Assembly: GCA_016936755.1 (NCBI GenBank) | Contig: JAFGXF010000045.1 | Location: 1-64,000 of the forward strand | Direction: 5' to 3' | DNA length: 64,000 bases | Source of the DNA: Anaerolineaceae bacterium | Lineage (GTDB): Bacteria; Chloroflexota; Anaerolineae; Anaerolineales; Anaerolineaceae | Shown here: piece after piece, positions 995 to 22,658 of the stretch | Position numbering within the stretch: position 1 is the first letter of the stretch | Layout: each line of letters opens with the position of its first letter | The notes under the pieces: model-generated | The model's database searches: none | The model's input: only the letters and a program-made list of their open reading frames with translations | What the model was told of the DNA's origin: nothing | Program-made: the position numbers and the translations under genes

Positions 995-1917
995 TGAAAA
1001 AAATCCTGATCACCGGCGCGAGTGGGTTGCTTGGGATCAATTTCGCTTTAACTGCGCAATCACTCGGGTATGAGATAGCGGGCGTTACATTAGAAAGCGA
1101 TATTGGCAGGACCCCATTTGAGTTGTCCTGTATGGATCTAACCCTACCGGGATCCATACAGAAACAGATCGAAGACCAGAAGCCGCAGGTGATCATTAAT
1201 TGTGTGGCGTTGACCAATGTGGATCAATGCGAGAAAAGCCCTGAAGCGGCTGAGCGAGTCAATGCGGCCCTGCCTGGTGAACTTGCATACGAAACCGCAC
1301 GTCGAAATATCAAATTGGTACAGATATCCACAGACGCCGTTTTTAATGGGAAGTGTGGCGGTTATGTAGAAGAGGACCCCGTTTCTCCAACGAATGTGTA
1401 TGCTGCCACAAAACTGGCTGGGGAAAAAGCGGTTATGGCTGAGGATTCAGAAGCACTTGTATGTCGGGTAGTCTTCTATGGATGGAGTATTTCCGGGACT
1501 AGAAGTCTGGCAGAATGGTTTTTTAATAAGCTGTCGACTGGAGAAGCAACCCGAGGTTTTTCTGACGTTATTTTTAGTCCACTGCTGGCAACCGATTTGG
1601 CTGCGATTATATTAAAACTGGTTGAACATGATGAGTCAGGGTTATTCCATGTGGTTAATCCACAAAGTATCAGTAAATATGATTTTGGACAGATCCTGGC
1701 ACGCCAGTTTGGATTTGATCATTCATTGATTTCACCCGCCAGTATTATGGACGCAGGTTTGATTGCAACACGATCGCCCAATTTGAATCTAAAACCCGAC
1801 AAATTACTATCCACCCTCGGGGAAGATTTGCCGGATCAGAAAACTGAAATGAGCCGTTTCCATCAGCAATACGTGGATGGATACCCATCATTATTAAAAA
1901 GCTTCAATATGAAGTGA
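994..1917 (+). CDS. RmlD-like sugar-nucleotide reductase (extended SDR)
   Basis: A 307-residue NAD(P)-dependent reductase of the RmlD (dTDP-4-dehydrorhamnose reductase) substrate-binding family. The nucleotide-binding motif GASGLLG is at residues 8-14, STDAVF at 112-117 and the catalytic pair in YAATK at 136-140. It probably reduces the 4-keto sugar made by the PseB/WbjB-like dehydratase to which it is coupled, giving a UDP-6-deoxy-L-HexNAc. No RmlA, B or C lies in view, so dTDP-rhamnose is not the obvious product. Substrate is an inference from position. Confidence 0.8.
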   Translation: MKKILITGASGLLGINFALTAQSLGYEIAGVTLESDIGRTPFELSCMDLTLPGSIQKQIEDQKPQVIINCVALTNVDQCEKSPEAAERVNAALPGELAYETARRNIKLVQISTDAVFNGKCGGYVEEDPVSPTNVYAATKLAGEKAVMAEDSEALVCRVVFYGWSISGTRSLAEWFFNKLSTGEATRGFSDVIFSPLLATDLAAIILKLVEHDESGLFHVVNPQSISKYDFGQILARQFGFDHSLISPASIMDAGLIATRSPNLNLKPDKLLSTLGEDLPDQKTEMSRFHQQYVDGYPSLLKSFNMK

Positions 1918-1959
1918 TATATCGACAATCTGGATATTTGAAGATAATGGAGGTGGCAA

Positions 1960-3210
1960 ATGGAAACAAAAGTGACTGAAGCAATAAACAGGTCGCAAAA
2001 TAGGAAAATGCGTTGGGTAACAGTCTTGCTTATTCTGGTATTGAGTGTAATTTCTTGTACCCTGCCCACGGGATTGATCCCAACCACTGCACCACCGATG
2101 GGTGTCGTAGAAACCATAGATGAAATACAAACAGTGGAATCGACGAGTACGGTCACTTTGGAACCGCAACCGTCTTCCACGCCATCTTCAACATATACTC
2201 CACAACCTACAGCTACCATCGCAAATCCAACTCCGATGGAGATTATGCCAGTTATCCCGAATCTGGCCCCCTCCCAACAGGCTTCTTTGTCACCTGTCAT
2301 TTCACCAGACACATTGATCTCCCTGACAGTGATCACAACACTGCAAGCACATGATAATCGGACAGCCAGCGTGGCATTTTCGACCAATGATCTTATACTC
2401 GCAACCGGCGCGTATGATAAAGATGCCAAGGCTTGGTCCACAACCAACTGGACACGTGCTTTTCGTTTCAGAGGGCATCAGTATACTGTATTTCAGGTGG
2501 CGATTTCGCCCGACAGCACACGATTGGCCAGTGCTTCAAACGATGGTTCAGTTAAAATCTGGAGTCTGACCAATGGTAAATTACTCAAAACGATCACTGG
2601 ATTTGATGCGCCGGTCCATAGTGTGGCATTCAACCCCGTAGGGAGTTTACTGGCTGCAGGGGCCGGGGATGGGCTCATTCACATATTTGACACAGCCTCA
2701 TGGGTTCGCGTTCGACAATTATCTGACCATTACCAGACAGTTACAGGCCTTTCATTCTCAAACGATGGCATTCTATTAGCCTCGGTAGCTAATGATGGTA
2801 TGTTGGTCATTTGGCAAATGCCAGATGGGGCCTTGTTGCGGCGGATTGAGGTGGATAACACCGCCGCTCATGCGGTTGATTTCTCACCAGATGCAAAAAC
2901 AGTCGTCGTTGCGTATGGCGACACTCAGGTGCGCATATGGGATGTGGTCAGCGGGCAGTTGCTTCATCAATTAAGTGGACATGAAAAAACTGTCCCGGCT
3001 GTGGTGTATTCACCTGATGGCTCGTTGATCGTGAGTGGATCGATGGATAAAACGATTCGATTTTATCGGGCGGCGGATGGAGTGTATCTGGGAACATATG
3101 ATGATATTCAATATGGTGTGCTATCCCTGGCATTTTCATATACACAGGACAAACTGGCTATCGGCTATTTTAATGGCTCTGTTGTAGTACTTGGATTGTC
3201 TGGTTATTGA
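1960..3210 (+). CDS. WD40-repeat lipoprotein
   Basis: A 416-residue exported protein. After a charged N-terminus there is a hydrophobic segment (about 19-31) ending in a lipobox with Cys33, then a Thr/Pro/Ser-rich linker to about residue 110. Seven WD40-type repeats follow (recurring SPDxxxLASxxxDGxVxIW patterns), enough for one seven-bladed propeller on the outer membrane face. GGAGGTGG sits just before the ATG. It lies between nucleotide-sugar genes and 8 bp from the nonulosonate synthase, so it is probably co-transcribed. Its role is unknown; a scaffold or ligand-binding function at the cell surface is a guess. Confidence 0.85.
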   Translation: METKVTEAINRSQNRKMRWVTVLLILVLSVISCTLPTGLIPTTAPPMGVVETIDEIQTVESTSTVTLEPQPSSTPSSTYTPQPTATIANPTPMEIMPVIPNLAPSQQASLSPVISPDTLISLTVITTLQAHDNRTASVAFSTNDLILATGAYDKDAKAWSTTNWTRAFRFRGHQYTVFQVAISPDSTRLASASNDGSVKIWSLTNGKLLKTITGFDAPVHSVAFNPVGSLLAAGAGDGLIHIFDTASWVRVRQLSDHYQTVTGLSFSNDGILLASVANDGMLVIWQMPDGALLRRIEVDNTAAHAVDFSPDAKTVVVAYGDTQVRIWDVVSGQLLHQLSGHEKTVPAVVYSPDGSLIVSGSMDKTIRFYRAADGVYLGTYDDIQYGVLSLAFSYTQDKLAIGYFNGSVVVLGLSGY

Positions 3211-3218
3211 GGTGACAA

Positions 3219-4286
3219 ATGGAGATTAAAATCGGTTCCAATCTGATTGGGAATGAGCACCCCACTTACTTCATCGCGGATATTTCTGCCAACCATGATG
3301 GGGATATGGAGCGGGCTAAAATACTCATTCACCAGGCAAAAGAGGCCGGCGCTGATGCAGCCAAATTCCAAAACTTTCGTGCGCCAAAGATTGTTTCGGA
3401 TTATGGATTTAAGTCATTGGGCGACCAGGTCTCACACCAGGCAACCTGGAAAAAATCAGTTTTTGAGGTCTACCAGGATGCATCGCTTCCTTTCGATTGG
3501 ACCCCAACATTGGTAGAAGAATGCGCCGATGCAGGCATCGATTATTTCTCGTCACCGTATGATTTTGAGGCCGTCGATATGCTTGATCCATATGTTCCGG
3601 CTCATAAGATAGGGTCAGGAGATATTACTTGGAGTGAGATGTTGGAGCATATTGCGCGTAAAGACAAACCGATCATACTGTCTACAGGCGCTTCTGATAT
3701 CGGCGATGTTCAACGTGCAGTCCATGCCATTTTACCGATTAATAAGCAGTTGGTGCTTTTACAATGCAACACCAATTACACTGCCAGCCTCGAAAATTAT
3801 GATCATATTCATCTGAATGTGCTGAAGACCTATCGACTAATGTTTCCAGATGTGGTGATTGGCCTGTCAGACCATACCAGTGGCCATGCCACAGTTTTGG
3901 GCGCCGTGACACTAGGGGCTCGCGTCATCGAGAAGCATTTTACGGATGACACGAATAGAATAGGGCCCGACCATCCTTTCTCCATGACACCCAAAACCTG
4001 GCGGGATATGGTGGATCGGACGCGGGAATTGGAAAGATCCATGGGTTCAGCTGAAAAGATTATTGCCGGTAATGAAGTTCAGACGGCAGTGGTTCAACGT
4101 CGCTGCTTAAGAGCTGCGCGGGATATTAAAGCGGGGGAGAGAATCACACGTGAAATGATCGATGTCTTGCGACCAGCCACGCCGGGAGCGATTCTACCGT
4201 TCGAGGTTCCATTGGTCATTGGCAAACGCGTGTTGGTCGACCTGCAATATGGGCAAGAGTTGCGTTGGATTCAAATTGGAGAGTAG
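3219..4286 (+). CDS. Nonulosonate (sialic/pseudaminic/legionaminic acid) synthase, NeuB/PseI family
   Basis: Condenses phosphoenolpyruvate with an N-acyl hexosamine to give a nine-carbon 2-keto sugar acid. The 355-residue protein has the full two-domain layout: a TIM barrel (residues 1-270; NHDGD at 25-29, AKFQ at 48-51, an SDHT and an EKHFT motif) and a C-terminal SAF/antifreeze-like domain (about 290-350) that in known enzymes caps the partner's active site. Length is normal for PseI/NeuB. RBS GAGGTGA precedes the ATG. Which nonulosonate is made cannot be read from sequence; the nearby PseB-like gene favours the Pse branch. Confidence 0.88.
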   Translation: MEIKIGSNLIGNEHPTYFIADISANHDGDMERAKILIHQAKEAGADAAKFQNFRAPKIVSDYGFKSLGDQVSHQATWKKSVFEVYQDASLPFDWTPTLVEECADAGIDYFSSPYDFEAVDMLDPYVPAHKIGSGDITWSEMLEHIARKDKPIILSTGASDIGDVQRAVHAILPINKQLVLLQCNTNYTASLENYDHIHLNVLKTYRLMFPDVVIGLSDHTSGHATVLGAVTLGARVIEKHFTDDTNRIGPDHPFSMTPKTWRDMVDRTRELERSMGSAEKIIAGNEVQTAVVQRRCLRAARDIKAGERITREMIDVLRPATPGAILPFEVPLVIGKRVLVDLQYGQELRWIQIGE

Positions 4287-13362: not shown

Positions 13363-14595
13363 ATGAAAAAGCAGAAAAGTGAAGTATTGGCAATCATCCC
13401 AGCTCGCGGTGGTTCAAAAGGCATCCCTCGGAAAAATGTCCGCGACTTGGCTGGATTTCCACTGATCGGTTTTTCAATTGCGAGTGCACGTGCATCCACA
13501 TTCGTGACACGAGTTATCGTAACAACGGATGATGAAGAGATTGCTGCGATAGCCCGACAACTTGACGCGGAAGTCCCTTTCATGCGGCCGCTTGATTTGG
13601 CAATGGATGATACTCGTGATTTACCGGTTTTTCAGCATGCCCTGAACTGGCTCACGGAGAACGAGAATTATCAACCGGATATCGTAGTTCACTTGAGACC
13701 CACCACCCCAACCAGGAAGCGCGGCTCCATCGATCAAGCTGTAAAGATATTTTTGGATAACCCTCACATCGACTCAGTTCGATCGGTCATTATTCCAAAT
13801 GAAAATCCGTTTAAAATGTGGAAGATACTATCGGATGGTCGAATGGAACCGCTGATTTCGCATAAAGTTGTTAGCGAGGCGTATAATGCACCACGCCAGA
13901 CCTTGCCAATTGCTTATTGGCACAATGGCCAGATCGATGTGGTCAGCCCAACGACCATACTCGAAAAAAAATCGATGTCAGGAGATATGATATTACCGAT
14001 TGTGCTGGACCCCGCTTATTCACTCGATATTGATACTAATGAGAATTGGCAATACGCCGAATGGGTTATCCGTTCACGAAAACTGGATATGGATTACCCG
14101 GGCAAACTGCTGAGACCCTGGCCGAAAAAAGTATCCCTGGTCGTATTCGATTTTGATGGTGTTATGACAGACAACCGGGTATGGGTGGATGAGGGTGGGC
14201 ATGAAATGGTCGCGGCCAACCGTTCAGACAGTTACAGTATCTCCCGGTTAAGAGCACAAAGCATCCCACTACTGGTAATTTCCACTGAAACAAATCCAGT
14301 AGTGGAAGCCCGCTGTCGCAAGATGAAAATTGATTGCATCCAAGGTGTAAAAGATAAGGCAATGGTTTTAAAGGATGTGCTGGAAAGCAAAAGAATTGCT
14401 GCACATGAGACGATATTTGTAGGTAATGATATAAATGATCTGGGTTGTTTTGAATTGGTTGGATTTGCCGTAGCGGTCGCAGATGCATTGCCAGAGGTGG
14501 TTAGTCAGGCGGATATGGTTCTGACTCATAAGGGTGGCCATGGTGCTGTGCGTGAAATTTGTGAGTTGGTTTTGGATATGCTTGCCAAGAATTAA
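13363..14595 (+). CDS. neuA: Bifunctional CMP-nonulosonate cytidylyltransferase / HAD phosphatase
   Basis: A 410-residue fusion. Residues 1-240 are an acylneuraminate cytidylyltransferase: IPARGGSKGIPRKN at 12-25, LRPTTPTRKRG and a terminal DIDTNENW. Residues 255-410 are a KdsC-like HAD phosphatase: nucleophile motif DFDGVMTD (263-270), VISTE, Lys near 330-332, and GNDIND (354-359), all catalytic positions present. This architecture would dephosphorylate a nonulosonate 9-phosphate and activate it with CTP; animal CMP-sialate synthases have a related C-terminal domain. A NeuB-type synthase follows 38 bp downstream. Confidence 0.88.
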   Translation: MKKQKSEVLAIIPARGGSKGIPRKNVRDLAGFPLIGFSIASARASTFVTRVIVTTDDEEIAAIARQLDAEVPFMRPLDLAMDDTRDLPVFQHALNWLTENENYQPDIVVHLRPTTPTRKRGSIDQAVKIFLDNPHIDSVRSVIIPNENPFKMWKILSDGRMEPLISHKVVSEAYNAPRQTLPIAYWHNGQIDVVSPTTILEKKSMSGDMILPIVLDPAYSLDIDTNENWQYAEWVIRSRKLDMDYPGKLLRPWPKKVSLVVFDFDGVMTDNRVWVDEGGHEMVAANRSDSYSISRLRAQSIPLLVISTETNPVVEARCRKMKIDCIQGVKDKAMVLKDVLESKRIAAHETIFVGNDINDLGCFELVGFAVAVADALPEVVSQADMVLTHKGGHGAVREICELVLDMLAKN

Positions 14596-14633: not shown

Positions 14634-15503
14634 ATGAAAGAAGTTCAAATCGGCAAATTCACAGTCGGGGAGGGGCACCCCACCTTTATTGTGGCAGAAA
14701 TTGGTATCAACCATAATGGAGATATCAACATCACCAAAGATCTCATTCGTGTTGCCAAGCATGCCGGGGTTGACGCTGTCAAGTTTCAAAAACGAACACC
14801 TGAACTGTGCGTTCCAGTTGAACAACGTGATCAAATGCGGGAAACCCCCTGGGGTTATATCTCCTATATGGAATACAGGCAAAAAGTGGAATTTGGCGGA
14901 ACCGAATATCAAGAGATTGATCGGTTTTGCAGAGAAACGGGAATTACATGGTTTGCTTCTGTTTGGGATGAAGAAGCGGTAAATTTCCTGGAACCATTTT
15001 CCCCGGTTTGTTATAAAATCCCATCTGCCTCATTAACGGATCATTCTTTATTGAAGCACATTCAAAAAACAGGGAGGCCAGCGATTCTTTCCACCGGCAT
15101 GTCCACCGATGAGCAAATTAGTGATGCGGTCAAAGTAATCGGAATGGACAACTTAATCATTGCCCATTCCACCAGCACCTATCCATGTGATCCTGATGAA
15201 TTGAACCTGAAAATGATCCAAACATTGCGCTCACAATACCCCTGTCCGGTGGGTTATTCAGGACATGAGGTGGGTTTGATAACAACCGTGGTGGCTGTAA
15301 GTTTGGGCGCATGCATGGTGGAACGCCACATCACACTTGACCGTGCCATGTGGGGCAGTGATCAAGCAGCTTCAATTGAACCCGGAGGCCTTGAACGACT
15401 TGTTAAGTATGTGCGTGTAACCGAACAAGCACTCGGCGATGGTATTAAAAAGGTATATGATAGTGAGTTACCGCATTTAAGGAAATTGCGACGAATCCAT
15501 TAA
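14634..15503 (+). CDS. NeuB-family nonulosonate synthase lacking the SAF domain
   Basis: A 289-residue TIM-barrel synthase: EIGINHNGD at 22-30, AVKFQKR, ILSTGMST, STYPCDPDELN and YSGHE, with an ERHITLD motif. These match NeuB/SpsE/LegI barrels that join phosphoenolpyruvate to an aminosugar. It ends after the barrel: the SAF domain seen in the 3219 gene is absent, with a clean stop and no SAF-like sequence after it. RBS GGAGAGAAGG is strong. Next to the NeuA-HAD fusion, it may act on a 6-phosphorylated substrate. Confidence 0.85.
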   Translation: MKEVQIGKFTVGEGHPTFIVAEIGINHNGDINITKDLIRVAKHAGVDAVKFQKRTPELCVPVEQRDQMRETPWGYISYMEYRQKVEFGGTEYQEIDRFCRETGITWFASVWDEEAVNFLEPFSPVCYKIPSASLTDHSLLKHIQKTGRPAILSTGMSTDEQISDAVKVIGMDNLIIAHSTSTYPCDPDELNLKMIQTLRSQYPCPVGYSGHEVGLITTVVAVSLGACMVERHITLDRAMWGSDQAASIEPGGLERLVKYVRVTEQALGDGIKKVYDSELPHLRKLRRIH

Positions 15504-15525: not shown

Positions 15526-15747
15526 ATGATAGATTTATCAATAATTGTTAAAAGTGTTTACCCAGATATTTCAGCTGATGGCATGTTGTATCTTGATCCG
15601 GGATCTGGTAGTTTTCTTCTCCAGATTTTGATTGCGACAATAGCAGGCGCTGGCATTTTCATTGCCGCTTCTTGGCGCAAGGTGAAGGCCTTCTTCATCC
15701 GCATATTTAAAAAAGGACAGACTCCCACAAAAACAAAAAAGACTTAA
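15526..15747 (+). CDS. Small membrane protein with YLDPGSGS motif
   Basis: A 73-residue protein with an AAGGAG RBS. Residues 22-30 are LYLDPGSGS, then one hydrophobic segment (about 31-49), then a basic tail (KVKAFFIRIFKKG) predicted on the cytoplasmic side. I recall short proteins with this Y-L-D-P-G-[ST]-G-S signature beside polysaccharide genes, but know no function. One base separates it from the kinase-like/methyltransferase gene, so the two are likely made together. Confidence 0.75.
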   Translation: MIDLSIIVKSVYPDISADGMLYLDPGSGSFLLQILIATIAGAGIFIAASWRKVKAFFIRIFKKGQTPTKTKKT

Positions 15748-15748
15748 G

Positions 15749-17131
15749 ATGAGTAAAATGGAAAACGTCTCAGGATCATTTCGTGACCCCAATGGGTTTC
15801 TTTTTACCCGTGGAAAAACGCTATATCGACAGGTCAATAAAGCTTATCAGAAGCACTACAAACTTCTGATGACTTCAGGCTTGTATTCCAGGTTGGTTGA
15901 TGATGGTCTGTTAGTCAAGCACGAGGAAACCAGTCAATCGCCGCTGAACCAGACATTGGCATACAAAGTAATTAAACCCGAGACAATTGGATTCATTAGT
16001 TATCCGTATGAGTGGTGTTTCAGTCAGTATAAAGATGCCGCACTATGTACTTTATCCATTATGAAGCACGCGCTTGAGTTTAATATGGTCTTAAAGGATG
16101 CCAGTGCATATAACATCCAATTTCTTAATGGCATGCCCCTGTTGATTGACACGCTTTCATTTGAAAAATATCAAGAGGGTTATCCATGGGTTGCCTACCG
16201 TCAATTCTGCCAGCATTTTCTTGCTCCTTTGGCATTAATGGCAAACACCGATATTCGGATGAGTCAGTTGATGCGAGTGTACATTGATGGTGTTCCACTC
16301 GATCTGGCAAGCTCTCTGCTTCCAGCGAAAACCAAGTTCAACCTGGGATTGCAAGCACATATTCATTTGCATGCATCTGCTCAGAAACGTTATGCGGGCA
16401 AGGATATTAAAAAAGTAGTGCAGCAACGAAAAGTTTCCAGGATGGCTTTTTCGGGTTTGGTAAACAGTTTGGAATCCACCGTGAAAAGTCTTGACTGGAA
16501 ACCGGAAGGAACTGAATGGGCTGAATATTATTCAGGAACAAATTACACAGATACAGCTTTTGAGTCCAAGAAAACATTACTAGAGGACTTGATCTCGATA
16601 GCTAAACCAAAGTCCATCTGGGATCTGGGAGCGAATACCGGTATTTTTAGCCGTGTGGCTACTAGTCAGGGAATAACAACCATCTCTTTTGATGTTGATC
16701 CGGCTGCAGTGGAAATTAATTATCTCGAATCAAAAAAGGCCAAGGAAAAGCATATACTCCCACTTTTGCTGGATCTAACGAATCCAAGCCCCGCCATTGG
16801 CTGGGCAAATGAAGAACGTCTGTCCTTTAAGCAACGCGCTCCAACTAATTTGACCATGGCGCTGGCACTTATCCACCATATGGCTATTTCTAACAATGTT
16901 CCTCTTCCTTCACTGGCAGAATTCTTCAGCCGATTGTCTCGATATCTCATCATTGAGTTCGTCCCTAAAGAAGACAGCCAGGTCCAACGGCTCCTGGTCA
17001 GCCGCGAAGATATATTTCCCAATTATCACCAGGAAGGCTTTGAGGATGCATTTAAGGCATATTATCGTGTGATTAAAGCGCTGCCAATCCCAGAGACAAA
17101 ACGCAGGTTGTACTTAATGGAGCGTCATTGA
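15749..17131 (+). CDS. Kinase-like / SAM-methyltransferase fusion (NoeA-like)
   Basis: A 460-residue protein. The C-terminal half is a class I methyltransferase with motif I DLGANTGIF (292-300) and acidic strand-2 end FDVD (314-317). The N-terminal half resembles the catalytic core of aminoglycoside-phosphotransferase/lipopolysaccharide kinases: D117-x4-N122-x11-D134 within LKDASAYN and LLIDTLSFE, the spacing of the catalytic loop and metal-binding Asp. The whole recalls NoeA-type nodulation proteins, annotated only as methyltransferases. Substrate unknown, presumably a glycan or lipid-glycan. Confidence 0.72.
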   Translation: MSKMENVSGSFRDPNGFLFTRGKTLYRQVNKAYQKHYKLLMTSGLYSRLVDDGLLVKHEETSQSPLNQTLAYKVIKPETIGFISYPYEWCFSQYKDAALCTLSIMKHALEFNMVLKDASAYNIQFLNGMPLLIDTLSFEKYQEGYPWVAYRQFCQHFLAPLALMANTDIRMSQLMRVYIDGVPLDLASSLLPAKTKFNLGLQAHIHLHASAQKRYAGKDIKKVVQQRKVSRMAFSGLVNSLESTVKSLDWKPEGTEWAEYYSGTNYTDTAFESKKTLLEDLISIAKPKSIWDLGANTGIFSRVATSQGITTISFDVDPAAVEINYLESKKAKEKHILPLLLDLTNPSPAIGWANEERLSFKQRAPTNLTMALALIHHMAISNNVPLPSLAEFFSRLSRYLIIEFVPKEDSQVQRLLVSREDIFPNYHQEGFEDAFKAYYRVIKALPIPETKRRLYLMERH

Positions 17132-18765
17132 GGGCGACCAGAGAAAAGTCCGGTTTTTTTTTCAGGGGTAGTGTTTTTATTCGACAAATGACTGTTTCAG
17201 CGAGGCAGTCATTTAATGACCGCCGAATCCTCAAATTGGATTCAGAAATTGCCCGTATCACTTCACAAACTAATAATACCGCACCCATTGTAATCTTCAA
17301 TGCTTCTACAAGAATAACCGGACTGAGCCAAAATGCTGCGTTTGCTCTTTTAACTGCATGGGCGTTGAGGTTATCAGGCCAGAGAGTGATTCAATTTATT
17401 TGTTCTCAGGGCATGAAACAATGCATATTGGGCACCAGCCGTGAGAATGTATGGCGGAATCCCCCATGCAAAAGTTGCATGGCGCAATCTCAACGCTTCT
17501 TCAGGAATAGCGAACAGGTAACATTTACCTACCATGAGGTCCTGCCTTTGAAGTCTGCAATCGAGAGTTTGAACATCCAACAACTGGCAACCTTCTCGTA
17601 TGAGGGGGTGGGTCTGGGTGAAATGGTATTACCTTCAATCCGCTGGGTGCTCAGACGACATCATCTTTTTGACGACCACAATACAAAACACCTCTACCGG
17701 CAGTTCATTCTTTCTGCCTGGAGCGTGATCAAAAACTTTGAAGAATTAATAACTAGGAATAAACCCAAAGCAGTTTTGGTTTTCAATGGTATGTTCTTCC
17801 CTGAGGCAGCTGTACGTCATGTGGCATTAAAGAACAACATTCGGGTGATCACCCATGAGGCCGGCATTCAATCTTTTTCCGGATTCTTTACCGAGGGCGA
17901 AGCGACCGCGTACCCATTATCAATCCCCCATAACTATAAGTTATCAGCGGCTCAAAATAAACAGCTGGATTCTTATCTTGAAAAACGCTTTGAAGGTAAA
18001 TTTTCCATGGCAGATGTTCAATTTTGGCCGCAAATGAATGATCTTGGTAGTGACCTGTTGAATGATATTCAGCGATATCAACAACTCGTAAGTATTTTTA
18101 CCAATGTTATTTTTGACACCAGCCAGCCACATTCGAATACCCTTTATTCGGATATGTTCGAATGGTTAGATAGCCTGCTGCCTGTTATTAATCAGTATCC
18201 TAAAACTCTTTTTGTGATACGAGCCCACCCAGACGAAACACGTCCAGGCAAGACAAGTCAGGAAACAGTGGCCGATTGGACTAAACATCGGGAGTTACAA
18301 ATCTATGAAAATGTACGGTTTATTAACCCCGAACAATACCTCAATTCTTATGAATTGATCAAAAAAGCGAAATTCGTGTTGGTTTATAATTCCACGGTTG
18401 GACTTGAAGCAGCCATTCTGGGGGTTCCCGTATTGTCGGCCGGCAGGGCGCGTTTTACACAATATCCTACCGTTACATTTCCGAAAACACGCGTTGCTTA
18501 TCTAAAAAAGCTTGATGAATTCATGAAAGCGAAAAGTATAAAAAGAGTGCCATCCCAACAAACCCAGGCAAGAAGGTTTCTGTATTTCCAGCTTTTTAAG
18601 ACATCACTGCCTTTCAATAAATACTTACAAGCCGATGGAATCTGGCGTGGCTTTGTTAGATTGACCAATTTCGGACCGGATCAATTAAGAGCAGAAAATT
18701 CAGAAACCATGCGGGTGCTAATTGAGGGGATAATTTCCGGCAAGCCATTCCTGGCGAGTGAATGA
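17128..18765 (+). CDS. Capsule-type GT-B protein with conserved Cys cluster
   Basis: A 545-residue soluble protein started by TTG (17128) with GGAG five bases upstream, overlapping the previous stop. C-terminal FVIRAHPDE (362-370) and YNSTVGLEAAILGVPVLS (420-437) are the signature of KpsC/KpsS-like capsule transferases (nucleotide-sugar site). The N-terminal half has Cys92, Cys99, Cys114 and Cys117 (ending PCKSC), a possible zinc or Fe-S site. A later ATG at 17188 is possible but poorly supported. Donor unknown; CMP-nonulosonate or CMP-Kdo would fit the family and the locus. Confidence 0.68.
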   Translation: MRATREKSGFFFRGSVFIRQMTVSARQSFNDRRILKLDSEIARITSQTNNTAPIVIFNASTRITGLSQNAAFALLTAWALRLSGQRVIQFICSQGMKQCILGTSRENVWRNPPCKSCMAQSQRFFRNSEQVTFTYHEVLPLKSAIESLNIQQLATFSYEGVGLGEMVLPSIRWVLRRHHLFDDHNTKHLYRQFILSAWSVIKNFEELITRNKPKAVLVFNGMFFPEAAVRHVALKNNIRVITHEAGIQSFSGFFTEGEATAYPLSIPHNYKLSAAQNKQLDSYLEKRFEGKFSMADVQFWPQMNDLGSDLLNDIQRYQQLVSIFTNVIFDTSQPHSNTLYSDMFEWLDSLLPVINQYPKTLFVIRAHPDETRPGKTSQETVADWTKHRELQIYENVRFINPEQYLNSYELIKKAKFVLVYNSTVGLEAAILGVPVLSAGRARFTQYPTVTFPKTRVAYLKKLDEFMKAKSIKRVPSQQTQARRFLYFQLFKTSLPFNKYLQADGIWRGFVRLTNFGPDQLRAENSETMRVLIEGIISGKPFLASE

Positions 18766-19337
18766 TACAGGAACACAAATTACCCGAGTTATTAACAATA
18801 GATAGCATGCCGCCGGTTGATGGATTGGCAGTACCGGATTTCTTCTTCCTTGTGATCAAAAAACCGGCACCATTGGCTGGTATGTGTCAGCCTACATCTA
18901 CCACACCATGGAACTGGCTCTTTAAAATCGGTTTGCAGCAGGTGATCTGTCTGACAGAAAGACCTCCAGCATATATTCCAGACCCACTCCAGATTGCTGG
19001 TCATTTTCCTCTCCAGGATCTTTATCATGGAAAATCACCCATCGATCATGAAGCAGAGAAGGAAAAGGTGTATCAGGCAAGTTACCTGGTAAAAGATCTG
19101 ATCATCCAACAAATCGGAGTCCTGGTTCACTGCATAGGCGGAATCGGACGCACAGGCACAGTGATTGGTTGTACATTGAGAGGGCTGGGATATAATTCAC
19201 CTCAGGTACTTTCCTATCTGGATCGCCTTAATCGGCTGCGTGGAACAAGGAATGGTTGGCCAGAATCGGAGTGGCAGACTGAAGTAATTCTCCAATTCCC
19301 CGTGAACCGTAGTGACCCATCCAGTGTATCAAGGTAA
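18762..19337 (+). CDS. Protein-tyrosine/dual-specificity phosphatase-like protein
   Basis: A 191-residue cysteine phosphatase with a complete P-loop HCIGGIGRTG (123-132; Cys124, Arg130) and a likely general acid Asp86 in FPLQDLY. Family members dephosphorylate protein Tyr/Ser/Thr, inositides or glycans. It overlaps the GT-B gene upstream (ATGA) and sits in a glycan operon. It could counter a BY-kinase controlling polymer length, or remove phosphate from a sugar intermediate; no BY-kinase is present in this window. Confidence 0.82.
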   Translation: MIQEHKLPELLTIDSMPPVDGLAVPDFFFLVIKKPAPLAGMCQPTSTTPWNWLFKIGLQQVICLTERPPAYIPDPLQIAGHFPLQDLYHGKSPIDHEAEKEKVYQASYLVKDLIIQQIGVLVHCIGGIGRTGTVIGCTLRGLGYNSPQVLSYLDRLNRLRGTRNGWPESEWQTEVILQFPVNRSDPSSVSR

Positions 19338-19344
19338 ATCATCT

Positions 19345-20022
19345 ATGACTGATATCGTTGCGCTTGTTCCAATGCGCCATCAATCCATGCGCGTTCCAGA
19401 GAAGAATTATCGCCTGATAGCTGGCAGGCCTTTATATACTTACATACTCGATACACTTGCTGCCTGTTCTGAAATCAGCCAGATCGTTGTGGATACGGAT
19501 AGTTCGGTAATCAAGGATGGGCTGAGAACTCAATATCCACGAGTGAGGGTCATAGACAGGCCTGCGCATTTATGTGCAGATACCATACCGATGAACGAGG
19601 TTCTGTTATATGACTGTGAATTGGTTAAGGCAGACTTGTATTTACAAACCCATGCTACCAACCCATTGTTATCAACAGCCAGCCTTTCAGAAGCCATTCG
19701 ATCACTATTAACGAGTCGGCAGGAGTACGATTCGTTGTTCTCGGTTACAAAACTACTTACTCGGTTATGGGATGCGTCAGGAAAGGCATTGAATCACGAT
19801 CCTCAATATCTGATTCGTACCCAGGATTTGCCACCCGTTTTTGAAGAGAATTCTTGTATTTATATTTTCAATGGAAAGATCCTGGCCGAGCGAAAAAACC
19901 GCCTTGGGTACCATCCGATGATGTTTGAAATCAATGCAAATGAAGCCTGGGATATTGACACAGAATCGGATTTTGAGGTTGTGGAAAGTCTTATTCAGAA
20001 TCGACGAGCCAGGACAAGTTGA
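19345..20022 (+). CDS. NeuA/KdsB-like nucleotidyltransferase
   Basis: A 225-residue cytidylyltransferase-family protein. The motif VPMRHQSMRVPEKN stands where NeuA has IPARxGSKxxPxKN, and LQTHATNPLL replaces LQPTSPLR; a terminal EAWDIDTESD is the metal-site Asp region. Start ATG 19345 is preferred (AAGG at 19331-19334) over the ATG at 19312 inside the phosphatase gene. It is the third cytidylyltransferase-like protein in the locus, so it may activate a different acid sugar; the substituted loop leaves activity uncertain. Confidence 0.75.
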   Translation: MTDIVALVPMRHQSMRVPEKNYRLIAGRPLYTYILDTLAACSEISQIVVDTDSSVIKDGLRTQYPRVRVIDRPAHLCADTIPMNEVLLYDCELVKADLYLQTHATNPLLSTASLSEAIRSLLTSRQEYDSLFSVTKLLTRLWDASGKALNHDPQYLIRTQDLPPVFEENSCIYIFNGKILAERKNRLGYHPMMFEINANEAWDIDTESDFEVVESLIQNRRARTS

Positions 20023-20055: not shown

Positions 20056-21051
20056 ATGAAAAAAGTATTATTAAGCGCCCCTTATATGATCCCAATCGCC
20101 GAAGAATTACAACCAGTATTCAATCATTATGGCATTGAAATGGTTATTGCGAATGTGAAAGAGCGACTGGATGAGGCAGCCTTGTTAGAATATGCCGGAA
20201 CCATTGATGGGGCAATCTGCGGAGATGACCAATACAGTGAGAAGGTTCTGAAGGCGTTTTTACCACGCTTAAAAGTCATTTCGAAATGGGGAACCGGAAT
20301 TGACTCGATTGATCAAAATTCTGCCAAGCGACTTGGCATTCAGGTGCGAAATACGCCCAATGCTTTTACAGCGCCTGTGGCAGATACAGTCATGGGTTTT
20401 ATACTGTCTTTTGCACGCAACATTCCCTGGATGGACGCGGTTATCAAAGAGGGGCAGTGGGTAAAATTAATGGGAAAATCATTATCTGAGTTGACCCTGG
20501 GTGTAATCGGTGTGGGTAATATCGGCAAGGCTGTCATGCATCGCGCGCGCAGTTTTGGGATGACATTGCTCGGTAATGATATTGTCCAAATCGATCAAGC
20601 CTTTATCGATAAGAACCAGGTGTCCATGGTTTCTTTGGATGACCTGTTGATTCAGGCGGATTATGTGAGTCTGAATTGTGATCTTAATCTGACCAGCCGG
20701 AAGTTAATGAACGCAAACAGATTTGCAGTTATGAAATCGGACGCAGTATTGATTAACACTTCCCGGGGAAGCGTGGTGGATGAGCTTGCATTAATCGATG
20801 CGTTACAGACGAAAAAAATCCGGGGTGCCGCTTTGGACGTGTACGAGGATGAGCCTTTGAAAGCGGATAACCCCTTGTTAAAAATGGGGAATGTTTTACT
20901 TGGCGCTCATAATTCCAACAGCAGCCCGATGGCTTGGGATAATGTGCATTGGAATACGATACGAAATCTTTTGCAAGGCCTGGAGATTTCGTGCGATGAT
21001 CTTAACCAGGTTCGACAGTCGAATGTGATATCAATTGGAGGTGTACCATGA
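20056..21051 (+). CDS. D-isomer-specific 2-hydroxyacid dehydrogenase
   Basis: A 331-residue NAD-dependent dehydrogenase of the phosphoglycerate dehydrogenase family. NAD-binding GVGNIG is at 152-157; the catalytic triad is Arg237 (NTSRGS), Glu266 (DEPL) and His285 (GAHNS). It lacks a C-terminal ACT domain, so it is not a regulated SerA. It overlaps the SDR gene and follows the NeuA-like gene, so it probably handles a 2-keto or 2-hydroxy acid sugar precursor. Substrate unknown. Confidence 0.82.
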   Translation: MKKVLLSAPYMIPIAEELQPVFNHYGIEMVIANVKERLDEAALLEYAGTIDGAICGDDQYSEKVLKAFLPRLKVISKWGTGIDSIDQNSAKRLGIQVRNTPNAFTAPVADTVMGFILSFARNIPWMDAVIKEGQWVKLMGKSLSELTLGVIGVGNIGKAVMHRARSFGMTLLGNDIVQIDQAFIDKNQVSMVSLDDLLIQADYVSLNCDLNLTSRKLMNANRFAVMKSDAVLINTSRGSVVDELALIDALQTKKIRGAALDVYEDEPLKADNPLLKMGNVLLGAHNSNSSPMAWDNVHWNTIRNLLQGLEISCDDLNQVRQSNVISIGGVP

Positions 21052-21815
21052 TGACCAATAAGCATCCGGTGGTCTTGATCACCGGTGCGGCTGGCGGGAT
21101 TGGGAAAGCCACGGTGAATGAATTCCATGATCACGCCTGGTCTGTGGTTGGGGTGGATCGATCAGATTATGGTGAGCCTTTTCCCACGCCCGGCCTGTTC
21201 ATTCGAGCAGACATATCCAATCCTTCTGATATATCTGTTATTTATAAAAAAGCCCAGGCATTCAGTGACCATCTAAATGCCGTTGTAAATAATGCGGCAG
21301 TTCAGGTATCCAAACCACTTATCGATACAACTCCTGAAGAGTGGGATATGGTCATGGCTTCAAACCTGCGTTCAGTTTTCCTGGGTGCGAAGCTTGCCCA
21401 CCCATTATTAAAAGCAGCCGGTGGTGGGGCGATCGTCAATGTGTCTTCTGTACATGCTATTGCAACCTCGAAAGACATTGCGGCTTATGCGGCTTCGAAG
21501 GGTGGATTGCTTGCACTCACCCGTTCCATGGCGATTGAATTTGCTGCGGATGATATTCGTGTAAATGCCATTCTACCCGGGGCAGTGGATACGCCAATGC
21601 TACGGGCAGGTATGCAGCGAGGCCACGTGGGCGGGAAAACCGTTCTCGACCGCCTTGAGAATCTGGCAAGGAAGACGGTAAACGGTCGGGTGGGTCAGCC
21701 GACAGAAATCGCCAGTTGTATCTATTTCCTTGCAGACGAGACTCAATCATCCTTTATGACCGGACAAGCCATGATCGTGGATGGTGGTGCGACTGCTCGC
21801 TTGAGTACGGAATAA
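21048..21815 (+). CDS. Short-chain dehydrogenase/reductase
   Basis: A 255-residue classical SDR: TGAAGGIG (12-19), NNAA (81-84), catalytic Ser133/134, Tyr147 and Lys151 (YAASK), and PGAVDTPM. RBS GGAGGT lies five bases before the ATG, which overlaps the preceding stop. SDRs of this size occur beside CMP-transferases in flagellin-glycosylation loci (PtmA-type), so an oxidoreductase step on a nonulosonate precursor is a reasonable guess. Confidence 0.82.
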   Translation: MMTNKHPVVLITGAAGGIGKATVNEFHDHAWSVVGVDRSDYGEPFPTPGLFIRADISNPSDISVIYKKAQAFSDHLNAVVNNAAVQVSKPLIDTTPEEWDMVMASNLRSVFLGAKLAHPLLKAAGGGAIVNVSSVHAIATSKDIAAYAASKGGLLALTRSMAIEFAADDIRVNAILPGAVDTPMLRAGMQRGHVGGKTVLDRLENLARKTVNGRVGQPTEIASCIYFLADETQSSFMTGQAMIVDGGATARLSTE

Positions 21816-21818
21816 TTA

Positions 21819-22658
21819 ATGCAAAAAGAAAAAATTAAAAGAATTTTACCGACATCCATCTGGAGGGCAGGTTCCCAGGCCTACTGGTGGTGGCACAATC
21901 GTGGACGACATGTTTCTTCCAGATTGACTTCCCCGGTTTGGCGTTGTAACCGCAAGCAAATGTTGGTATACGAAAATATCCATGCTGGAAAAAGGGCATT
22001 CATAATCGGGAATGGGCCCAGTTTGAAGCACATGGATCTTGGTCTATTAAAAAACGAGATCACTTTTGGTTTAAATCGTATCTATCTTGCATTCCCTGAG
22101 ATTGGATTTTCCACCACCTATTTGGTTTCTGTGAATGATCTGGTACTTGAACAGTGTGCCAAGGAGATGGCGAAACTGAATGTCCCCAAATGGATTACGT
22201 GGCGTGCACATAAGCATTTCAAACCGGATGGCAAGACTCATTTCATTGATAGTGATTATACGGGAGCAGAAGACTTCAATCATACGTGCTTATCCGGTCG
22301 TTTTTTTGAAGGTTTCACGGTAACCTACGTGGCTTTACAAATTGCCTATCTCATGGGAATACGTGAAGCCATCCTGATCGGTGTTGATCATAACTTCTCC
22401 ACCAAAGGGCCTGCAAATACAGTTGTGGTTTCCACAGGAGATGACCCGAATCATTTTTCTGGAAAATATTTTGGCCGGGGTTTCAAGTGGCAATTACCCG
22501 ATTTAGAGGGTTCAGAGCGGGCATACCACCTGGCCTACAATACTTATAAAGCCAATGGCCGCAGCATTCTGGATGCAACGGTGAACGGGAAATTAACGAT
22601 ATTTGACAAAGTGAATTTCACAACTTTATTTTCCCAGAACGGTAAGGGCAAGGCATGA
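21819..22658 (+). CDS. DUF115/Maf-like protein, candidate nonulosonate transferase
   Basis: A 279-residue protein with IIGNGPSLK at 62-70, FGLNRIYL at 83-90 and ILIGVDHNF at 185-193, the layout shared by MptE-like DUF115 proteins, flagellin Maf proteins and GT42 sialyltransferases. Maf proteins transfer pseudaminic or legionaminic acid to flagellin, and GT42 enzymes use CMP-Neu5Ac. With two nonulosonate synthases in the locus, this is the best candidate for the transferase that uses their products. A pterin pyrophosphokinase role is unlikely here. Confidence 0.72.
   Translation: MQKEKIKRILPTSIWRAGSQAYWWWHNRGRHVSSRLTSPVWRCNRKQMLVYENIHAGKRAFIIGNGPSLKHMDLGLLKNEITFGLNRIYLAFPEIGFSTTYLVSVNDLVLEQCAKEMAKLNVPKWITWRAHKHFKPDGKTHFIDSDYTGAEDFNHTCLSGRFFEGFTVTYVALQIAYLMGIREAILIGVDHNFSTKGPANTVVVSTGDDPNHFSGKYFGRGFKWQLPDLEGSERAYHLAYNTYKANGRSILDATVNGKLTIFDKVNFTTLFSQNGKGKA

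What the first reader, a model, noticed from the sequence alone, without database searches (positions are those of the whole stretch)
15526..19337. Four-gene block: YLDPGSGS peptide, kinase-like/methyltransferase, Cys-cluster GT-B, tyrosine-phosphatase-like
These four genes are spaced 1 bp or less or overlap (apart from a 22-bp gap before the first), so they look like one functional unit. A potential phosphate-adding domain and a phosphate-removing enzyme flank a capsule-type transferase, with a tiny membrane anchor in front. I know of no described system with this content; it could make, and later remove, a phosphate cap or methyl-phosphate cap on a glycan.
Basis: inference. Interest (0 to 1): 0.7.

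Follow-up and report, generated by a model that had tools for sequence, protein, structure and literature searches.

The report
NoeA pair inserted in sugar-acid cluster
The four neighbouring genes are not one machine: the first two are an ancient pair found across many bacterial phyla and in some archaea (a tiny membrane peptide plus a NoeA-type kinase-like methyltransferase), set into a conserved sugar-acid gene cluster that supplies the third gene, while the fourth is a stray phosphatase seen only here.

Summary
Relatives carry a conserved nonulosonate-type backbone, NeuA-KdsC > NeuB > GT > NeuA2 > hydroxyacid dehydrogenase > SDR. In the window the YLD peptide and methyltransferase sit between NeuB and GT, and the phosphatase sits between GT and NeuA2. 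The phosphatase has no full-length relative in 396 genomes of the class and is absent from every synteny map examined. The GT is a near-core gene of the order, present with or without the other genes. The first two genes are a real unit. Gene 2 belongs to the NoeA family (kinase-like plus class I methyltransferase, WbdD-like). Gene 1 accompanies NoeA almost without exception: 74 of 80 NoeA loci from about 20 phyla have it within 900 bp, and it overlaps noeA in the Sinorhizobium nodL-noeA-noeB operon, where it is only 'hypothetical protein'. The usual third partner is NoeB, a membrane alkaline-phosphatase-fold enzyme closest to phosphoethanolamine transferases, not the phosphatase. The kinase-MTase and its conserved neighbours were already described (PMC9758233). 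The peptide has no Pfam or NCBIfam family. Most likely role: membrane-anchored decoration of a lipid-linked glycan with phosphate and/or methyl (inferred).

The parts
15526..15747 (+). YLD peptide: 73 aa, motif YLDPGSGS-x3-Q just before one hydrophobic helix, then a basic tail; small membrane partner of NoeA
   Evidence: Y, D, P, G, G, S, Q invariant in 19; linked to NoeA; no Pfam/NCBIfam hit
15749..17131 (+). NoeA-family protein: N-terminal kinase-like domain (D117, N122, D134) and C-terminal class I SAM methyltransferase (DLGANTG, D315/D317, H376-H377, EFVPKxD)
   Evidence: (36% to S. meliloti NoeA); AlphaFold pLDDT 90; best PDB fold matches are WbdD
17128..18765 (+). GT-B-like glycosyltransferase with an invariant four-Cys cluster; belongs to the NeuA-KdsC/NeuB backbone, not to the YLD-NoeA pair; start may be the ATG at 17188
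   Evidence: (Capsule_synth and Epimerase_2, weak BFO_1060_trans)
18762..19337 (+). DSP/PTP-type Cys phosphatase (HCIGGIGRTG), inserted between GT and NeuA2; not conserved
   Evidence: (DUSP23-like)
13363..14595 (+). NeuA-like CMP-sugar synthetase fused to KdsC-type phosphatase; conserved backbone gene
14634..15503 (+). NeuB-family nonulosonate synthase; conserved neighbour of GT in relatives
19345..20022 (+). second CMP-sugar synthetase-like gene (NeuA2); next to or near GT in relatives without the PTP
20056..22658 (+). backbone continues: D-2-hydroxyacid dehydrogenase, SDR, MptE-like protein

Best explanation
The window holds a two-gene YLD-NoeA module set into a conserved nonulosonate-type glycan operon between NeuB and GT, plus an unrelated phosphatase gene between GT and NeuA2 (shown by synteny). 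Proposed mechanism (inferred): YLD is a single-span inner-membrane protein with its YLDPGSGS face outside and a basic tail inside. It holds the cytoplasmic NoeA kinase-methyltransferase at the membrane beside its substrate, a lipid-linked glycan or sugar. NoeA adds phosphate and/or methyl to it, much as WbdD caps the O9a chain. Where NoeB is present, this phosphoethanolamine-transferase-like membrane enzyme acts on the product on the outer face. In this genome NoeB-like genes lie elsewhere (contigs C75 and C11).
For: Synteny: NeuA-KdsC > NeuB2 > GT > NeuA2 > HADH > SDR > MptE without YLD, NoeA or PTP in relatives. NeuB2 > YLD > NoeA (> NoeB) > GT in other genera of the family (e.g. L236, L237, L241, L243). 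Linkage: all 37 class genomes with a strong YLD match also have NoeA. 35 of 37 class NoeA loci have YLD nearby, both misses at contig ends. 74 of 80 NoeA loci in about 20 phyla, including Methanoculleus and CPR bacteria, have YLD within 900 bp, 67 of them upstream on the same strand. YLD overlaps noeA in S. meliloti pSymA. Kinase residues D117/N122/D134 and the SAM site are invariant. Top fold matches are WbdD, the kinase-MTase that adds methyl phosphate to a glycan end (PMC3482155). NoeB: about 36 of 80 immediately downstream, sulfatase/AP superfamily, fold closest to MCR-1/EptA/EptC, with conserved D190, T231, H364 and D433. Neighbours in other phyla are often glycosyltransferases.
Against: No biochemistry was found for any NoeA or YLD protein. 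The WbdD match aligns about 208 columns, and the sequence-profile match is only to the methyltransferase part; the kinase fold was not searched on its own. Domain order differs from WbdD. The usual catalytic Lys is Arg in the family (PMC9758233; R27 here is invariant and may be its equivalent), so kinase activity is uncertain. Some NoeA loci, e.g. between topA, a mannose-1-phosphate guanylyltransferase and greA in family f2, are not in glycan clusters. YLD topology was judged by eye from sequence.
Confidence: 0.45

Rival explanations
1. One reading: the four genes form one system that adds a phosphate or methyl-phosphate cap to a glycan and later removes it with the PTP.
For: Tight spacing; kinase-like and phosphatase domains near a GT.
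Against: The PTP has no full-length homologue in 396 class genomes (best 3e-11, partial), none in plasmids and none in 20 GT or 14 NoeA neighbourhoods. GT occurs without NoeA in many genomes. Spacing continues beyond the four genes.
Confidence: 0.05
2. YLD is the acceptor rather than an adaptor: its invariant YLDPG(S/T)GS face is modified outside by NoeB, or before export by NoeA, and serves as a carrier or primer.
For: The motif is far better conserved than the rest of the peptide. YLD also sits beside a NoeB copy in a locus with a second YLD at NoeA (L061). In many homologues an A-x-A site precedes Y, giving a mature N-terminal Tyr.
Against: The motif is predicted outside the cell while NoeA is cytoplasmic; many loci have YLD-NoeA without a linked NoeB.
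Confidence: 0.2
3. NoeA is a methyltransferase only; the kinase-like half is a nucleotide-binding or substrate-recognition pseudokinase.
For: Methyltransferase signature complete; catalytic Lys replaced by Arg and no ion-pair Glu found (PMC9758233); no kinase family matched in Pfam or in PDB sequences.
Against: D117, N122 and D134, likely equivalents of PKA D166, N171 and D184 (mapping of the family by PMC9758233), are invariant in 45 sequences across phyla, unusual for a pseudokinase.
Confidence: 0.25
4. YLD only tunes noeA translation (a leader ORF) and has no protein function.
For: It often overlaps or abuts the noeA start.
Against: Its motif amino acids are strictly conserved; in some loci it lies downstream or on the opposite strand, or beside NoeB.
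Confidence: 0.05

Closest known systems
NoeA/NoeB of the Sinorhizobium meliloti nod-box n5 operon (nodL-noeA-noeB)
   Same: Gene 2 is 36% identical to NoeA over 98% of its length; S. meliloti carries the same small YLD gene overlapping noeA.
   Different: Here there is no nodL and no adjacent NoeB; the pair lies in a NeuB/NeuA sugar-acid cluster.
Lani_1194 kinase-methyltransferase family of the Legionella pan-kinome survey (PMC9758233)
   Same: Same NoeA family; the survey reports conserved neighbours Lani_1193 (65%) and Lani_1195/NoeB (38% of 816 neighbourhoods).
   Different: The text I could read does not say what Lani_1193 is; whether it is YLD was not tested here. Linkage of YLD to NoeA found here is higher (74 of 80).
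WbdD of E. coli O9a (kinase-MTase adding a methyl phosphate cap)
   Same: Kinase plus class I MTase in one protein; best fold matches of the model.
   Different: Reversed domain order, no coiled coil in the model, no detectable kinase-part sequence match.
EptA/EptC/MCR phosphoethanolamine transferases (for the partner NoeB)
   Same: Membrane domain plus periplasmic AP-superfamily domain; best fold matches.
   Different: Low identity (about 12-16%); donor and acceptor unknown; NoeB is not in this block.

Membership tests
NoeA family (Lani_1194-type kinase-methyltransferase) | full-length similarity to NoeA | tested here: met
   35.9% identity over 98% of query to S. meliloti NoeA, E about 1e-73
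NoeA family (Lani_1194-type kinase-methyltransferase) | kinase-like D..N..D residues and class I SAM motif | tested here: met
   D117, N122, D134, D292, G294, D315 invariant in 45
NoeA family (Lani_1194-type kinase-methyltransferase) | conserved same-strand small neighbour | tested here: met
   YLD 1 bp upstream; class- and phylum-wide linkage; identity of this neighbour with Lani_1193 not tested
noeA-noeB operon type | NoeB directly downstream | tested here: not met
   GT follows instead; NoeB-like genes on contigs C75 and C11; NoeB is present at this spot in relatives
WbdD family | MTase then kinase then coiled coil, methyl phosphate transfer to polymannose | tested here: not met
   domain order reversed and no coiled-coil tail in the model; activity not testable
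four-gene co-travelling system | the four genes recur together in other genomes | tested here: not met
   PTP never found with the others
DSP/PTP Cys phosphatase (PF22784 PTP-SAK) | HCx5R(S/T)G signature and profile score above cut-off | tested here: met
   HCIGGIGRTG; 45.9 bits against cut-off 27
GT-B Capsule_synth-like glycosyltransferase | profile score above cut-off | tested here: met
   PF05159 26.2 bits against 20, PF02350 32.8 against 30.6; activity not testable
active kinase | ATP-dependent phosphotransfer | not testable with these tools
   needs enzymology; Arg in place of catalytic Lys in the family

The most novel reading that the evidence does not exclude
YLD is the obligate membrane subunit of a pan-prokaryotic YLD-NoeA-NoeB machine: a cytoplasmic kinase-methyltransferase and an outer-face phosphotransferase joined through a tiny peptide with a near-invariant external YLDPG(S/T)GS face, which puts a methylated phosphate group on surface glycans. 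The unnamed ORF overlapping noeA would then be a missing fourth gene of the rhizobial nod-box n5 host-range operon.
Probability: 0.25. Interest if true: 0.75.

Novelty: new member of a known kind. Interest (0 to 1): 0.45.

Why it matters
The four-gene system is not real, but checking it uncovered something more general: a tiny membrane protein without a family model that is linked to almost every NoeA protein examined, in about 20 phyla, and that sits unnamed in the well-studied host-range operon of Sinorhizobium meliloti. If it is needed for NoeA function, work on noeA/noeB has missed a gene, and the unknown chemistry of the NoeA family becomes testable in a tractable symbiont. It also gives a clean example of an optional decoration module set into a conserved sugar-acid cluster.

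Tried and rejected
Four-gene unit: rejected by neighbourhood analysis. PTP as NoeA's partner: rejected; NoeB is the usual third gene. Recent foreign origin of the block from base composition: no clear signal, the genes are 39-47% GC against 44-51% in their neighbours, the low value being the very short YLD gene. Defence or phage module: no meaningful hits. My first motif scan for YLD (DPGxG[S/A]) undercounted (62 of 80 on the same strand); a profile search found variants such as YLDPATGS, YLDAGTGS and YVDWGSAS. A single insertion of YLD-NoeA into the sugar-acid cluster: the NoeA tree does not show one origin (6 changes; 10.2 expected by shuffling; backbone unresolved). Literature on the YLDPGTGS motif: nothing in the library. 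Co-occurrence in a second phylum sample could not be run.

Full report
Observation. The four ORFs are present at the stated coordinates with the stated spacing. Two caveats: the GT start is uncertain (TTG 17128 or ATG 17188, since homologues align only from residues 19-50), and the spacing does not stop at the block. NeuB2 ends 22 bp before it and NeuA2 starts 7 bp after it. The stretch is a slice of a longer operon.

Gene families. Gene 1 has no Pfam, NCBIfam, PHROG or PADLOC match. Gene 2 has only a weak methyltransferase match in Pfam, but tblastn against plasmids finds Sinorhizobium NoeA at 36% identity over 98% of its length. Gene 3 scores just above the cut-offs for Capsule_synth and Epimerase_2. 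Gene 4 is a DSP/PTP-type Cys phosphatase, PF22784, related to DUSP23.

What travels together. NoeA-type proteins occur in 44 of 396 genomes of the class. In the 37 loci with good NoeA matches, 35 have a YLDPGxGS peptide nearby; the two misses are at contig ends. Searching the same 396 genomes with a YLD profile, all 37 genomes with a strong match also have NoeA; three genomes with weak matches do not (the Fisher p of about 1e-45 ignores relatedness). Beyond the class, a genome-collection scan gave 566 NoeA relatives, of which the best 80 were fetched, from about 20 phyla including CPR bacteria and Methanoculleus. A YLD profile finds the peptide within 900 bp of NoeA in 74 of 80: 67 upstream on the same strand, 4 downstream, 3 on the opposite strand. 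Three more are within 4 kb, one lies at a contig edge, one has it elsewhere in the genome and one has a weak match. In S. meliloti pSymA and Rhizobium sp. T136 the peptide overlaps the start of noeA, annotated only as hypothetical protein.

What does not. The GT is found at 43-54% identity in 33 of 37 sampled genomes of the order, although only about half of those have NoeA. Its neighbours are NeuA-KdsC, NeuB2, NeuA2, HADH, SDR and MptE. Of the 80 phylum-wide NoeA loci only one, another Anaerolineales bacterium (L122), has a GT homologue nearby, and none has the PTP. The PTP has no full-length relative in 396 genomes (best 3e-11 over 77 residues) and none in plasmids.

How the arrangement arose. 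In other genera of the same family (which includes Longilinea arvoryzae, L240) the order NeuA-KdsC > NeuB2 > YLD > NoeA > NoeB > GT > NeuA2, or parts of it, recurs (L236, L237, L240, L241, L242, L243, L249). So YLD, NoeA and GT are neighbours by family-level synteny, and the gene usually between NoeA and GT is NoeB. In the window NoeB is missing from this place; NoeB-like genes lie on contigs C75 (539 aa, 30-39% to the in-cluster copies) and C11 (fragment). The NoeA tree clusters the in-cluster copies more than chance but not as one origin.

How it may work. The AlphaFold model of gene 2 (pLDDT 90) matches WbdD best in the PDB; WbdD phosphorylates the end of a lipid-linked glycan and methylates the phosphate (PMC3482155). 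The kinase-like residues D117, N122 and D134 and the SAM-site residues are invariant. PMC9758233 mapped the corresponding conserved positions in the family as kinase residues and noted Arg for the catalytic Lys. The partner NoeB is predicted as a membrane AP-superfamily enzyme close to phosphoethanolamine transferases. YLD has an invariant motif followed by a hydrophobic stretch and a basic tail; many homologues have a signal-like start ending A-x-A before the Tyr. By the positive-inside rule the motif lies outside and the tail inside (inference). The simplest model is an anchor or adaptor holding NoeA at the membrane, with NoeB acting on the other face. The linkage and synteny are shown; the anchoring, the chemistry and the substrate are inferred.

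What was known. The NoeA kinase-MTase family, its breadth, its link with NoeB and a conserved second neighbour were reported in the Legionella pan-kinome survey (PMC9758233). NoeA/NoeB are host-range genes for particular Medicago species (Ardourel 1995, as cited in PMC9758233; PMC4053727 reports a truncated noeA in a nodulation-deficient strain). What I did not find described is the YLD peptide itself, its motif and its presence in the nod-box n5 operon; the library lacks most subscription papers.

Verdict.

Noticed in passing
window 17128-18765 (GT residues C92, C99, C114, C117): A four-Cys cluster invariant in 21 GT homologues, suggesting a bound metal or Fe-S site in a GT-B-like enzyme.
   Followed up: partly
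L195 (G000 contig C75) 2620-4239 and L196 (contig C11) 1-393: NoeB-like genes of this genome lie away from NoeA; C11 holds only a C-terminal fragment at the contig edge.
   Followed up: partly
L073 4754-4969 and L074 4766-4981: An unnamed YLD ORF overlaps noeA in Sinorhizobium/Rhizobium symbiotic plasmids.
   Followed up: yes
L061 around 1900-4200: Two YLD copies, one beside a NoeB-like gene and one beside NoeA, so YLD may partner either enzyme.
   Followed up: no
L107, L147, L164: YLD lies next to NoeA on the opposite strand, so co-transcription is not essential to the link.
   Followed up: no
L031-L041 (order relatives, family f2): YLD-NoeA sits in a constant non-glycan context near topA, a mannose-1-phosphate guanylyltransferase and greA.
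   Followed up: no
L065 (G192) and G157 contig C261, G005 contig C59: NoeA is broken into frame-shifted pieces in these genomes, with YLD still next to it.
   Followed up: no
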